Positions 734 to 5,452 of a stretch of DNA of 64,000 nt are shown one piece after another. The notes beneath the pieces are model-generated. The model saw only the letters and a program-made list of their open reading frames with translations, ran no database searches and had not been told where the DNA came from. Source of the stretch: Gammaproteobacteria bacterium RIFOXYD12_FULL_61_37 (GTDB taxonomy: Bacteria; Pseudomonadota; Gammaproteobacteria; Chromatiales; Chromatiaceae); contig MGZB01000018.1 of the NCBI GenBank assembly GCA_001801995.1, positions 1-64,000 on the forward strand, in the 5' to 3' direction. Position 1 is the first letter of the stretch. The number at the start of each line of letters is the position of its first letter. The position numbers and the translations under genes are program-made.

Positions 734-806
734 GCCTTTATCATTAATCACCATGAATTAGACGGCATTGTGGGTTTAGCTTAATGCCGTGGTAAAAGCC
801 AGAATA

Positions 807-1787
807 ATGACCAAACCTATACCTTCAGTTGTCTATGACTCATATTGGTATTTGGCAGCAGAAAGGCAGAACATTTTTTTTAAAAGGTTCAATGATGATT
901 TGGGCCCTTGGACTTACGACCCAATCTTACAAAAGCATAAATTCACGAATGCATACCGCGCTTCAGATAGAGTCAGTCAGTATCTAATCAAAAATGTAAT
1001 ATACAAAGGCTCTCAAGAGCATAACGAAGTGTTCTTTAGAATTATCCTGTTTAAGTTATTTAACAAGATAGAGACGTGGGAGCTTTTGAATGAAAAATTA
1101 ACTGACATTTCATTTGAAAGTTTTAATTACCGTGATTATGACGCGGTGTTGAGCGGGGCTATGAATGAGGGGAAGAGAATATACTCCGCCGCATACATTA
1201 TGGCATCGGGCGCTAAAGTATTTGGGGCAGGCAAAAAGCACCAAGCGCACCTAAAGCTAATACAGATGATGATGGATGATCACCTTCCGGAAAAATTATT
1301 TTACAGCACATCGATGGAAAAAGCATATAAGCTCTTGCTAGGCTATCCAATGATTGGGAGTTTTTTGGCTTATCAATTCGCAACAGATGTAAATTACAGC
1401 GAGTTAACAAATTTTCCTGAAACGAGTTATGTAATGCCTGGGCCTGGCGCTTTAAATGGTATACAGAAATGCTTCACAAGCTTAGGCGATTACTCAACCG
1501 AAGATGTCATAAAAATGATGGCTGATATACAGGAGAAAGAGTTTGCAAGGCTAGGCATAAACTTTAAGACACTTTGGGGCCGACAATTGCAATTGATAGA
1601 TTGCCAAAACATATTCTGTGAGACAGATAAATATGCGCGGGTAAAATTCCCAGAAGTACAGGGGCAATCGAAAAGAACGCGAATTAAACAAACATTCCAA
1701 ATGAAATTAGACAAGTTAGAGCCCTGGTATCCTCCAAAATGGGATATTAATAATCGAATATCTGTGTGGCGCGCGGCAGATGTTTAA
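807..1787 (+). CDS. HMUDK_hel / AGPT-pyrophosphorylase-like nucleotide-kinase-domain protein
   Basis: This 326-residue protein resembles the family annotated as nucleotide kinase domain or 5-hmdU DNA kinase helical domain, related to alpha-glutamyl/putrescinyl-thymine pyrophosphorylases. Recognised blocks in order are DSYWYLAAERQNIFF (about 10-24), PWTYDPILQKHKFTNAYRAS (about 35-54), a central IYSAAYIMASG block, SFLAYQFATDVNYSEL (about 190-205), MPGPGALNGIQKCF, and LWGRQLQLIDCQNIFCETDK near the C-terminus. In phages with hypermodified thymine, relatives act on 5-hydroxymethyl-dU in DNA; a chromosomal role is inference. The stop overlaps the start of the thymidylate-synthase homologue by 8 bases, so the two are co-transcribed. 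The start is uncertain: ATG 807 is chosen and GTG 789 is possible. Base composition is clearly AT-rich against the host. Confidence 0.8.
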   Translation: MTKPIPSVVYDSYWYLAAERQNIFFKRFNDDLGPWTYDPILQKHKFTNAYRASDRVSQYLIKNVIYKGSQEHNEVFFRIILFKLFNKIETWELLNEKLTDISFESFNYRDYDAVLSGAMNEGKRIYSAAYIMASGAKVFGAGKKHQAHLKLIQMMMDDHLPEKLFYSTSMEKAYKLLLGYPMIGSFLAYQFATDVNYSELTNFPETSYVMPGPGALNGIQKCFTSLGDYSTEDVIKMMADIQEKEFARLGINFKTLWGRQLQLIDCQNIFCETDKYARVKFPEVQGQSKRTRIKQTFQMKLDKLEPWYPPKWDINNRISVWRAADV

Positions 1788-2790: not shown

Positions 2791-3609
2791 ATGCCATTCT
2801 GGAGTGGAGAAAAACTTGAAGCAGAGCTGGCGAGTTGCATAACAACAGGGGGGTATGGGGCTGAAAATATTGACTGCGCCTCGTATACGTTGCATGTCGG
2901 GCCTGAAGTATTCATTACACCAGACCATTATGAACCTAACCCAAGTCAAAATACCAAAAGAAAGCTAGCGATAGACGAGGCTTTTAACATTCCATCTGGA
3001 CAGTTTGCATTCTTGCTGACTGAGGAGGAAGTTAGCATATCGGATAAATGTATTGCGTTTATTTCGATGAAGGCCTCAACAAAATTCAAGGGGCTTGTGA
3101 ACGTCTCCGGGTTTCATGTTGACCCAGGATACAAAGGCCGACTGGTATTTTCTGTTTTCAATGCAGGCCCAGCGCCAATAAAACTTCAACGTGGCATGCC
3201 GCTCTTTTTAATGTGGCTTGCTGACTTGGATCGTCAAACAACGAAAGTAAAGAATAACAAGCCTATAACCGAATTGAATCTCAAAATCTTAGACCCTATT
3301 CATGGGCCTATTTTCTCGCCACAAGCAATTTCTGAAAGTGTCCAATCGTTTAAAAGCGACATCAAAGATGATGTCCACAAAATAGATACGAAAGTTTCAA
3401 ACCTTATTGCAATTACTTCGTTATTAGGTATTTTAATTACAGGAGTAGCGGGCTATCAGATTAAGCAATTAATGGATAAAGTAGATAGGCTCACGGAACA
3501 GAATATTGCATTGAATAGTGAAAAATCAATCTCAGACACGAAACGCCTTGATGCCAATAAATTAACCGTATCGCCTGAAAAAAATATGGCTACGAGTAAG
3601 GCTCCGTAA
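2791..3609 (+). CDS. dUTPase/dCTP-deaminase-fold protein with C-terminal coiled coil and membrane helix
   Basis: The N-terminal 175 residues have the Dcd/Dut trimeric fold. ENIDCASYTLHVG (about 25-37) and GFHVDPGYKGRLVFSVFNAG (about 108-127) are the diagnostic motifs. At the position of the catalytic Glu of dCTP deaminase (LEFYN in E. coli Dcd) this protein has Ser (FSVFN), as dUTPases do (SVWN), so dUTP/dUMP chemistry or plain nucleotide binding is more likely than deamination. Residues about 185-205 are helical and charged. A single hydrophobic segment, LIAITSLLGILITGVAGY (about 207-224), follows, then another short coiled coil. The protein should be membrane-anchored, which is unusual for a housekeeping nucleotide enzyme and typical of immune sensors or effectors. 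It lies 3 bases after the ThyA homologue. Confidence 0.75.
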   Translation: MPFWSGEKLEAELASCITTGGYGAENIDCASYTLHVGPEVFITPDHYEPNPSQNTKRKLAIDEAFNIPSGQFAFLLTEEEVSISDKCIAFISMKASTKFKGLVNVSGFHVDPGYKGRLVFSVFNAGPAPIKLQRGMPLFLMWLADLDRQTTKVKNNKPITELNLKILDPIHGPIFSPQAISESVQSFKSDIKDDVHKIDTKVSNLIAITSLLGILITGVAGYQIKQLMDKVDRLTEQNIALNSEKSISDTKRLDANKLTVSPEKNMATSKAP

Positions 3610-3629
3610 TCCATCGCATCTATGATCTA

Positions 3630-3641
3630 GGGGGGGGGGAG
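3630..3641 (+). promoter_or_regulatory. ribosome-binding site inside a run of nine G
   Basis: The Shine-Dalgarno sequence of the TIR-like gene is a run of nine G (3630-3638) followed by AG and the ATG at 3642. No other homopolymer of this length was noticed in the window. A G tract at this spot could slip and change the spacing or strength of translation initiation of the effector gene. Confidence 0.5.
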
Positions 3642-4124
3642 ATGAGCATAAAAAACGTGTTTATTAGCCATCATCACAAAGATGATGCCTTGGTCGATAA
3701 GATGACGAGCTTGCTCAGCAAGAATGGTTGTGAAATTCGTAATAGTTCGATTCGTGCGAAACCTGCTAACCAAGAGAGATTAGATAAGGGACTTGTCAAA
3801 GAGAAAACCATCGAGAGATTGCTCAGAATGAAAATGTCTTGGGCCGGTACGGTTAGCGTTCTCGTAGGCAAGGAAACGCATACTCGGCCTTGGGTAAACT
3901 GGGAGATTAAAGAGGCTCAAAGACAAGGCAAGAACATAGTGGGTGTTTATGAGCAAGGTCTGAAAGACAAGGTTGAGCTACCGGAGGCACTGAAGAGTTA
4001 TGGTACATCGCAGGTCGGTTGGAACGCAGAAAGCATAATCAATGCTGTTAACGGCAACTCGATATTCCAAAATCCTGACGGCAGCCTAAGCCCAAGGCAA
4101 GACGGTGATCATGCAGTCTGTTAG
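3642..4124 (+). CDS. TIR-like (DUF1863/ThsB-type) domain protein
   Basis: A 160-residue protein of the TIR-like family seen in ThsB-type and MTH538-like proteins. The first strand with the conserved loop is NVFISHHHKDD (about 5-15). TVSVLVGKETHTRPWVNWEI (about 70-89) holds the Trp-x-x-x-Glu segment that carries the putative catalytic Glu. KNIVGVYEQG is the next strand. TIR-like proteins of this type cleave NAD or make signalling nucleotides in anti-phage systems such as Thoeris; which applies here is unknown. It follows the Dcd-like gene by 32 bases. Its stop codon (TAG, 4122-4124) lies inside the 5-bp target duplication of the MITE, so the insertion left the protein intact. It has no signal peptide or membrane segment. 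Confidence 0.72.
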   Translation: MSIKNVFISHHHKDDALVDKMTSLLSKNGCEIRNSSIRAKPANQERLDKGLVKEKTIERLLRMKMSWAGTVSVLVGKETHTRPWVNWEIKEAQRQGKNIVGVYEQGLKDKVELPEALKSYGTSQVGWNAESIINAVNGNSIFQNPDGSLSPRQDGDHAVC

Positions 4125-4125
4125 A

Positions 4126-4289
4126 CCCTGAATCCGTGACGAAAACCTGATGCTTCGCTGTAACCAGTTGATTCCATCATGGTTATCGGAATATCTTCAT
4201 TAACCAAAGATGGTGGTCAGGTATTACTGGAATATCTTTTGTAATCATGGCGTTATATATGCCAGGCCTTTTTTCGTCACGGATTCAGG
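4126..4289. mobile_element. MITE-like element with perfect 19-bp terminal inverted repeats
   Basis: CCTGAATCCGTGACGAAAA at 4127-4145 is repeated in perfect inverted orientation at 4271-4289. TTAGA flanks both sides (4121-4125 and 4290-4294), a likely target-site duplication. The 164-bp element has no coding capacity. Internally GGAATATCTT appears twice (about 4188 and 4240). Removing the element and one TTAGA would bring the TIR-like stop and the Nmad2 start to 5 bases apart. It therefore appears to have inserted between two co-transcribed genes. Confidence 0.8.
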
Positions 4290-4298
4290 TTAGAAGCG

Positions 4299-4946
4299 AT
4301 GGGCAATTACCTTTACATTTACGTCGTTGACCGAGACTTTGGTTTTGCTCCAAATCCATTTCATGGATATTGCACTCTTGCCACATGCAAGCCAAAAATA
4401 TGGCGTCATGCACAGATTGGCGATTGGATTATGGGGGTTGGTGGATGTCGACTAAAAGCGACAGGCAAGAGTATCTATCTAATGAAAGTTTCTGAGATAT
4501 TAACTTTCAATGAATATTGGTCTGATGCACGGTTCTTAAGAAAGAGGCCGACGAGGAACGGTAGTTTAGTAATGATGGTGGGGGATAATATATATCATCA
4601 AGAGCCAGGGAGCGACTCTTGGATTCAAGAAGACTCACACCACAGCAACTCTGTTGGCACGACAAATCCAAAAAATATGGAGAGAGATACATCCGCCGAG
4701 AACGTACTAGTATCAAATCATTTTTACTACTTTGGTAAATCTGCCCCACCTATTGACCTTGCATTAATTGGCTATAAAAATCACATTGGTGAAAGCAAAG
4801 AATTAATTGCCAGTGAAGATGTAGCCACATTCCTTTATGAGTTAGAGCAGCAGAATAAGAGTGGAATGAACTTAGTTCTAGATGACCCATTTGATTTCTC
4901 AGCTGCCCAGAAAAGGGTTGACCAAGCTAGCAGGAAAATCACCTGA
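4299..4946 (+). CDS. Nmad2 (nucleotide modification associated domain 2) family protein
   Basis: A 215-residue protein whose first third matches the Nmad2 signature: NYLYIYVVDRDFGFAPNPFH (3-22) followed by GYCTLATCKPKIWRHAQIGDWIMGVGG. Nmad proteins were defined by their repeated association with genes that make or read modified nucleotides; their biochemistry is poorly known. NHFYYFGKSAPPIDL (about 140-154) looks like the second conserved strand pair. The C-terminal 50 residues are polar. Position downstream of the HMUDK-like, ThyA-like and Dcd-like genes fits the family's known context. Without the MITE it would start 5 bases after the TIR-like stop. It may serve as reader or sensor of a modified base or nucleotide, which is inference. 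Confidence 0.75.
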   Translation: MGNYLYIYVVDRDFGFAPNPFHGYCTLATCKPKIWRHAQIGDWIMGVGGCRLKATGKSIYLMKVSEILTFNEYWSDARFLRKRPTRNGSLVMMVGDNIYHQEPGSDSWIQEDSHHSNSVGTTNPKNMERDTSAENVLVSNHFYYFGKSAPPIDLALIGYKNHIGESKELIASEDVATFLYELEQQNKSGMNLVLDDPFDFSAAQKRVDQASRKIT

Positions 4947-4981
4947 TTAGAATCGCACTGGCATGTTGGGATATTTTAACT

Positions 4982-5452
4982 ATGAAAATAATAAAACTTT
5001 TTGAAAACTGGGATATGAAAGGGTTGAAACTCAACCTTGGGTTCGTTGAAACCGAATGGGAGCCTCAAGTGAAAGATTCTGAGGCGGCTTGGGAAATGTA
5101 TGTAGAGTTGCTGACGAGAATCGCCACTCAGCCCCTACCTGATAATTCGGGAATGGAATCTAGTGCTTTGGAAAGTGTTTACAGCCTCTTTGGCATTACC
5201 AGAGGCATATTGAGAAAATATGGGAAGGACTCAATAGGATTTGCAAAAATCGCCATCATCGTTCTAAACTAAATAGTTCGACCCTTCACAGCTCGCTGGC
5301 ACATGCTATCTGAAGAGAAGGCATTTAAAGATCGGGAGCAGTGCACTCTTTTTAGAAGAGAGTTGAAGGAATTGCAGGTAAATCTCAAGAGCTACATGGG
5401 AATGCTCGCTGAGATTGCTGGTGTCGAAGAAATATCGTCCATCAATGAGTAG
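4982..5452 (+). pseudogene. small helical Nmad2-linked protein, frame broken by one in-frame stop
   Basis: The frame from ATG 4982 runs 96 codons to a TAA at 5270-5272. The same frame then stays open for 59 more codons to TAG at 5450-5452, reading IVRPFTARWHMLSEEKAF and onward. The joined 156-position protein looks continuous: the RPF-x-x-x-WH motif sits right after the stop, following VLN. Changing TAA to CAA (Gln) would restore VLNQIVRPF. The gene is thus a nonsense pseudogene, a sequencing error or a readthrough candidate. The protein is acidic and helical with no membrane segment, and I do not know its function. It lies 35 bases after the Nmad2 gene on the same strand and is probably the last gene of the set. 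Confidence 0.6.

What the first reader, a model, noticed from the sequence alone, without database searches (positions are those of the whole stretch)
4126..4294. A MITE split the TIR-like and Nmad2 genes without breaking either
Perfect 19-bp inverted repeats and TTAGA on both sides mark an insertion. Removing the element with one TTAGA puts the TIR stop (TAG) 5 bases before the Nmad2 ATG. The target duplication even contains the TIR stop codon. So the two were adjacent co-transcribed genes, and the element may now uncouple their expression.
Basis: seen in the sequence. Interest (0 to 1): 0.72.

Follow-up and report, generated by a model that had tools for sequence, protein, structure and literature searches.

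The report
Mini-transposon between TIR and Nmad2 genes
A 164-base non-coding mini-transposon of a common insertion-sequence family sits exactly between two genes that elsewhere almost touch, leaving both proteins intact but possibly changing how the second is expressed.

Summary
Perfect 19-bp inverted repeats (4127-4145, 4271-4289) lie between direct repeats TTAGA (4121-4125, 4290-4294), with one extra C (4126) on the left. The tip, CCTGAATCCGTGACGAA, is an end of IS1380-family insertion sequences and of miniature derivatives: in 122 loci examined, 31 of 68 end pairs carry an exact 5-bp duplication against the tip (29 of them 72-279 bp long), and two full elements with such ends encode transposases that pass NCBI's IS1380 model. 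The window element has no gene and is single-copy; no transposase of this type passes the Pfam cut-off in its draft genome. Ancestral adjacency is supported by 15 other TIR-Nmad2 junctions (Cyanobacteria to Bacteroidota, one from the window genome's own family): spacing -38 to +13 nt, against 174 nt here and 5 nt in the reconstructed empty site. The TIR protein ends where 12 of 12 aligned homologues end. No same-species allele without the element was found. Altered coupling is inference: the long stem starts 2 nt after the TIR stop and makes the Nmad2 start harder to open, but local structure and terminator scans are unremarkable. The element is ordinary; the recurrent TIR-Nmad2 pair beside base-modification genes is the more interesting context.

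The parts
4121..4125 (.). left copy of the target duplication TTAGA; holds the TIR stop codon TAG (4122-4124)
   Evidence: TIR ORF ends at 4124
4126..4126 (.). extra C between the left duplication and the left tip
   Evidence: same one-base offset in 4 of 68 related end pairs
4127..4145 (+). left terminal inverted repeat CCTGAATCCGTGACGAAAA
   Evidence: same tip in IS1380-type elements
4146..4270 (.). non-coding core of the element; only short chance-like matches elsewhere (best 27 bp at 89%)
4248..4264 (+). weak terminator-like hairpin followed by GGCCTTTTTT, in the TIR-to-Nmad2 direction; chance level
   Evidence: 1 found, 1.2 expected in shuffles; -7.1 kcal/mol
4271..4289 (-). right terminal inverted repeat, exact reverse complement of the left
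4290..4294 (.). right copy of the target duplication TTAGA
3642..4124 (+). TIR protein gene (ThsB-like), 160 aa, intact C-terminus
   Evidence: Pfam ThsB_TIR 72.6 bits; PADLOC ThsB 191 bits; C-terminus aligned with 12 homologues
4299..4946 (+). Nmad2 (nucleotide modification associated domain 2) gene, 215 aa, intact
   Evidence: Pfam Nmad2 225.8 bits, profile 4-198 of 200
789..1787 (+). 5-hmdU DNA kinase helical-domain protein, same-strand gene upstream
   Evidence: Pfam HMUDK_hel 362.8 bits
1780..2787 (+). thymidylate-synthase-like protein
   Evidence: Pfam PF00303 88.5 bits; below the NCBIfam equivalog cut-offs
2791..3609 (+). dCTP-deaminase-like protein
   Evidence: Pfam DCD 54.6 bits; below the NCBIfam cut-off

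Best explanation
A non-autonomous miniature element with IS1380-type ends was inserted, by an IS1380-family transposase acting in trans (inferred), at a TTAGA target that spans the stop codon of the TIR gene. The duplication kept the stop on the left and left 4 nt plus the Nmad2 ATG after the right copy, so both proteins survived (shown by the sequence). Before that the two genes were 5 nt apart, as homologous pairs nearly are elsewhere (shown by comparison), and were presumably translated in a coupled way (inferred). The insertion now places a long stable stem 2 nt after the TIR stop and moves the Nmad2 start to 174 nt. It most likely lowers re-initiation at Nmad2 and makes it rely more on new initiation, so the TIR:Nmad2 ratio shifts (inferred, untested).
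For: Perfect 19-bp arms, beyond the 14-bp maximum of 20 randomised windows. TTAGA on both sides. In those 119 loci plus L053-L055 there are 68 end pairs, 31 with an exact 5-bp duplication against the tip; 29 of the 31 are 72-279 bp long, two are 1.6-1.7 kb. Full elements: L083, 1695 bp, ATTTC duplication, and L224, 1654 bp, TTCAA duplication, the latter in the window genome's own family; their transposases score 311.7 and 336.9 bits on NF033539 transpos_IS1380, cut-off 180. Within the family the 15-base tip occurs in 7 of 210 genomes (own included), with the reversed control at 0. Adjacency: 15 TIR-Nmad2 junctions at -38 to +13 nt (loci). TIR ends within 2 residues of a C-terminal cysteine in the window and in 12 of 12 aligned homologues. 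The element as RNA folds at -61.7 kcal/mol, z -6.8; opening -18..+12 around the Nmad2 start costs 19.2 kcal/mol with the element and 9.8 without. Re-initiation is held to be favoured below about 25 nt spacing, and structure just after a stop codon goes with less of it (PMC7518266, abstract and passages).
Against: No same-species allele without the element. Single copy; the core matches nothing else held beyond short pieces. No IS1380-type transposase over the cut-off in the own genome, only a 19.7-bit match inside an IS4/DUF4372-type frame on C46; the same-genus genome has only a 31.7-bit fragment, below cut-off. The extra C. Both ends are of the GTGACGAA type, which only 1 of 68 pairs (L167, no duplication) shows. 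Against the hairpin-insulator part: the first 60 nt after the stop fold no better than in the empty allele (-11.3 against -11.7 kcal/mol), so it rests on the long-range stem alone; the tip slightly improves pairing with the 16S tail (-4.5 against -1.1 kcal/mol); the terminator-like site is at chance.
Confidence: 0.88

Rival explanations
1. The inverted repeat is a native regulatory hairpin of the operon (attenuator, terminator or ribosome-termination structure), not an insertion; TTAGA on both sides is chance.
For: Strong RNA fold, z -6.8; position right after a stop codon; a weak terminator-like site.
Against: The tip recurs at the ends of IS1380-type elements with 5-bp duplications; none of 15 homologous junctions has such a spacer; Rfam has no match at E up to 0.1 in 3500-5000; a given 5-base match has a chance of about 1 in 1000.
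Confidence: 0.03
2. The insertion is neutral for expression: the 19-bp stem folds the spacer away, so TIR stop and Nmad2 start remain about 11 unpaired bases apart and coupling is kept.
For: The stem pairs 4127-4145 with 4271-4289, leaving 2 nt before and 9 nt after it.
Against: The Nmad2 start region is harder to open with the element; PMC7518266 (passages) links structure after stops to less re-initiation.
Confidence: 0.2
3. The insertion is polar: transcription ends at the hairpin-T6 site in the element and Nmad2 is hardly made.
For: Hairpin 4248-4264 (-7.1 kcal/mol) followed by GGCCTTTTTT.
Against: One such site in 1.5 kb is the chance expectation (1.2); 4 bases separate stem and T run; Nmad2 has kept a full-length frame.
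Confidence: 0.2
4. The element activates Nmad2 by bringing a promoter or ribosome site.
For: The tip and duplication give GGT (4288-4290), with a bulged GGA, 8 nt before the ATG: -4.5 against -1.1 kcal/mol in the empty site.
Against: Still weak beside the sites before the DCD (-10.0) and TIR (-11.5) genes; G4288 and G4289 are paired in both transcripts folded; no sigma-70-like promoter in the element.
Confidence: 0.12

Closest known systems
IS1380 family insertion sequences (L083 in Ectothiorhodospira haloalkaliphila, L224 in a genome of the same family as the window's)
   Same: Terminal CCTGAATCCGTGA core (one mismatch at one end each) and 5-bp target duplication; IS1247 of this family is listed with DR 5 and 1672 bp (PMC3281130, table passage).
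   Different: The window element is 164 bp, without transposase, and both ends are of the GTGACGAA type.
Miniature elements with IS1380-type ends, 72-279 bp (29 pairs)
   Same: Size, ends, 5-bp duplication, no room for a transposase.
   Different: They have one GTGACGAA end and a different second end (with CGTT shortly after GTGA in 19 of the 31 duplicated pairs); the window element is symmetric over 19 bp and single-copy.
TIMEs (Tn3-derived miniature elements, PMC4133298, passages)
   Same: Short non-autonomous element, usually single-copy, predicted stable RNA fold.
   Different: 38-bp Tn3-type repeats; different transposase family.
Ribosome termination structure (PMC7518266, abstract and passages)
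   Same: Stable RNA structure just after a stop codon inside a gene pair.
   Different: Here it would come from a transposon and rest on a long-range stem; effect untested.

Membership tests
IS1380-family element (non-autonomous) | IS1380-type terminal sequence | tested here: met
   17-base tip identical to an end of L083, whose transposase passes NF033539; 13-base core shared with L224, one mismatch at one end
IS1380-family element (non-autonomous) | 5-bp target duplication abutting the tips | tested here: inconclusive
   TTAGA on both sides but an extra C on the left; this offset occurs in 4 of 68 related pairs
IS1380-family element (non-autonomous) | own IS1380 transposase | tested here: not met
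   longest stop-to-stop frame 39 codons; so it can only be a derivative, not an IS
MITE | short, non-coding, terminal inverted repeats, target duplication | tested here: met
MITE | multicopy in the genome | tested here: not met
   one copy in 3.47 Mb. Eight other near-tip sites: only partners with 3-4 mismatches (one site: L004 1+3, others 2+3, 2+4) and no matching flanks
MITE | mobilised in trans by a related transposase | not testable with these tools
   no PF13701 match over cut-off in the own genome; 64 of 204 genomes of the family have one
Thoeris (host gene, context only) | ThsB-type TIR protein | tested here: met
   PADLOC PDLC00418 191 bits; Pfam ThsB_TIR
Thoeris (host gene, context only) | ThsA effector beside it | tested here: inconclusive
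   none among the five window proteins scanned; the rest of the window was not scanned, and the contig begins at window position 1, so upstream genes are missing

The most novel reading that the evidence does not exclude
TIR and Nmad2 form a widespread, translationally coupled module of a ThsB-like defence system tied to thymidine/uracil-base modification enzymes, not met in the open-access papers searched, and here a transposon hairpin placed on the TIR stop codon acts as a ready-made translation insulator that resets the TIR:Nmad2 ratio.
Probability: 0.25. Interest if true: 0.55.

Novelty: new member of a known kind. Interest (0 to 1): 0.33.

Why it matters
The insertion is a natural experiment. 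A gene pair found within about 40 nt of each other at 15 junctions across phyla is here split by 174 nt without damage to either protein, so the need for coupling between a TIR protein and Nmad2 can be tested by comparing two alleles. The element also ties a set of miniature elements with CCTGAATCCGTGA ends to IS1380.

Tried and rejected
The tip seemed at first to belong to an IS4/DUF4372 insertion sequence on contig C12 of the own genome. That element's own candidate ends (an inverted ACTACTGTCCGGTAG motif, read by eye) lie further in, and the tip stands just outside them, so I dropped this parent. The tip at C12 has no partner; the one-mismatch site at C11 lies inside a predicted gene and has only a weak partner (3 mismatches, 556 bp away, flanks different). 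Weak partners at C20 and C26 also have different flanks.

The 174-bp query against 92 genomes (own included) at E up to 10 gave, outside the own locus, only short pieces or single tips (its list was cut). Plasmids and phages hold no similar DNA at E 1e-5. Viral-contig scans with the TIR and Nmad2 proteins gave no relative; the tip pattern gave one viral contig, without a partner end.

Nmad2 without a TIR neighbour also exists: four of the five non-own class hits (L178-L181) and G053 (L234) show no TIR match better than E 0.07 within the DNA held. Four of 15 plasmid records with Nmad2 have no TIR match and were not fetched. The pair is common, not universal. Four weak TIR plasmid hits (30.6-33.6% identity) have no Nmad2 hit. 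In the samples searched Nmad2 is rare: 6 of 369 class genomes and 3 of 204 family genomes, own included; the TIR query rang in 2 of 398 phylum genomes.

A terminator and a promoter in the element were looked for; the scans are at or below chance level. Rfam found nothing. Paper searches: Nmad2 (three unrelated papers, listing only), tip letters (one unrelated paper, listing only), Thoeris with thymidylate synthase (listing only), TIR with hypermodification (listing; passages of PMC10853773 and PMC7824862 seen, neither holds 'Nmad' in its main text). Searches were listings from which PMC3281130, PMC4133298 and PMC7518266 were opened for passages.

Full report
Observation. The arms 4127-4145 and 4271-4289 are perfect 19-bp inverted repeats, flanked by TTAGA at 4121-4125 and 4290-4294. 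In 20 order-1 Markov versions of the window the longest perfect inverted repeat within 400 bp had a 14-bp arm. The left side carries one more base than expected, C4126. Taking out 4126-4294 leaves TAG-AAGCG-ATG, 5 nt between the TIR stop and the Nmad2 start, against 174 nt now.

What the element is. It is single-copy in the 3.47-Mb draft genome and has no stop-to-stop frame longer than 39 codons. Its 15-base tip occurs in 7 of 210 genomes of the family, own included, and the reversed control in none. In those 119 loci and L053-L055, 68 end pairs were found (core with up to 2 mismatches, one end exact) and 31, all different, have an exact 5-bp direct repeat directly against CCTG; chance would give under 0.1. 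Of the 31, 29 are 72-279 bp long and two are full-size (L083, L154). Two full elements were examined for their gene: L083 (1695 bp, duplication ATTTC, Ectothiorhodospira haloalkaliphila) and L224 (1654 bp, duplication TTCAA, a genome of the window's family). Their transposases pass NCBIfam NF033539 transpos_IS1380 at 311.7 and 336.9 bits, cut-off 180. PMC3281130 lists IS1247 of this family with 1672 bp and a 5-bp repeat (table passage). So the element is a miniature IS1380-type derivative.

Oddities. In L083 the GTGACGAA end is the one upstream of the transposase. In the 31 duplicated pairs the two ends agree from the tip over at most 14 bases; the window element agrees over 19, and only 1 of all 68 pairs (L167, without duplication) has GTGACGAA at both ends. 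The window element therefore looks as if it had two upstream-type ends. The one-base offset on the left recurs in 4 of 68 pairs. The own genome has no PF13701 match over the cut-off, only 19.7 bits inside an IS4/DUF4372-type frame on C46, but 64 of 204 genomes of the family have one, so a transposase could have come from outside or been lost.

The empty-site question. No allele from the same species is held, and the same-genus genome G001 has no Nmad2 match. Homologous junctions answer in part. Eleven of 15 plasmid records with an Nmad2 match also have a TIR match directly upstream. G251 (same class), G163 (same family, TIR 61% and Nmad2 48% identical) and G838 (same phylum) have the pair too, and Mesorhizobium has a second pair. 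Over these 15 junctions the annotated or chosen Nmad2 start lies -38 to +13 nt from the TIR stop, often as an overlapping TGATG. Alternative starts move single values (for example +7 instead of -38 in Roseicitreum, +10 instead of -8 in G251). None has a spacer like the window's. In the window and in 12 of 12 aligned homologues the TIR protein ends within two residues of a C-terminal cysteine, so the insertion cut nothing off. Nmad2 genes without a TIR partner exist as well.

How it probably acts. If the genes are still co-transcribed, the RNA has a stem of 19 pairs starting 2 nt after the TIR stop; the element folds at -61.7 kcal/mol, z -6.8. Opening -18..+12 at the Nmad2 start costs 19.2 kcal/mol with the element, 12.3 if transcription starts after the left arm, and 9.8 in the empty allele. 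PMC7518266 (abstract and passages) reports that structure right after a stop codon lowers re-initiation and that spacings under about 25 nt favour it. Results that weaken this: the 60 nt right after the stop fold no better than in the empty allele (-11.3 against -11.7 kcal/mol), so the barrier would have to be the long-range stem; and the tip supplies a GGT 8 nt before the ATG that pairs a little better with the 16S tail (-4.5 against -1.1 kcal/mol), though its two G are paired in both folds made. The terminator-like site at 4248-4264 is at chance level. I favour reduced coupling with some independent initiation; this is inference.

Context. The pair follows, on the same strand, genes for an HMUDK_hel kinase, a thymidylate-synthase-like and a dCTP-deaminase-like protein. 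Related loci carry, in varying sets, the kinase, thymidylate synthase, a MazG-type protein, uracil-DNA glycosylase and TIR, SIR2 or phospholipase proteins (annotated; 66, 79). The TIR protein matches ThsB models of PADLOC (191 bits); Nmad2 matches none there. Full-text searches found no paper on Nmad2 in this setting, within the open-access library held. That the cluster is a base-modification-linked defence system is inferred from family names and recall, not tested.

Verdict. A real insertion: an IS1380-type miniature element between two genes that are adjacent wherever else the pair was seen here. New member of a known kind; the effect on expression remains open.

Noticed in passing
window 4982-5449: The 96-aa ORF 4982-5272 is the first part of a gene related to a 166-aa protein beside TIR-Nmad2 in G251 (L177 471-971, 51% identity over 5009-5449); an in-frame stop at 5270-5272 truncates it, so it looks like a pseudogene. 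The same domain forms the N-terminal part of a patatin-like phospholipase protein in Mesorhizobium (L206 6730-9306).
   Followed up: partly
L205-L215, L182, L232, L233: TIR-Nmad2 pairs recur in Cyanobacteriota, Pseudomonadota, Actinomycetota and Bacteroidota, in varying sets next to nucleotide kinase, MazG-type, uracil-DNA glycosylase and TIR/SIR2/phospholipase genes: a possibly undescribed defence module.
   Followed up: partly
L206 3636-6636: The Mesorhizobium plasmid MesoLj131a2 holds two divergently oriented TIR-Nmad2 pairs side by side.
   Followed up: partly
L056-L174: Miniature elements of 72-279 bp with IS1380-type ends recur in deltaproteobacterial MAGs (for example JAJRTB01, JALSTM01, CALZIH01, JAMOMO01), commonly with one GTGACGAA end and one GTGAGCGTTCACC-like end.
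   Followed up: partly
G000 C12:20687-20707 (L005 1501-1521): A solitary CCTTAATCCGTGACGAAATA tip stands just outside an IS4/DUF4372 element of the own genome, perhaps a remnant of another IS1380-type element.
   Followed up: no
L167 2579-4237: A 1659-bp stretch with GTGACGAA at both ends and a 255-codon transposase-like frame, but no flanking duplication; not scanned against family libraries.
   Followed up: no
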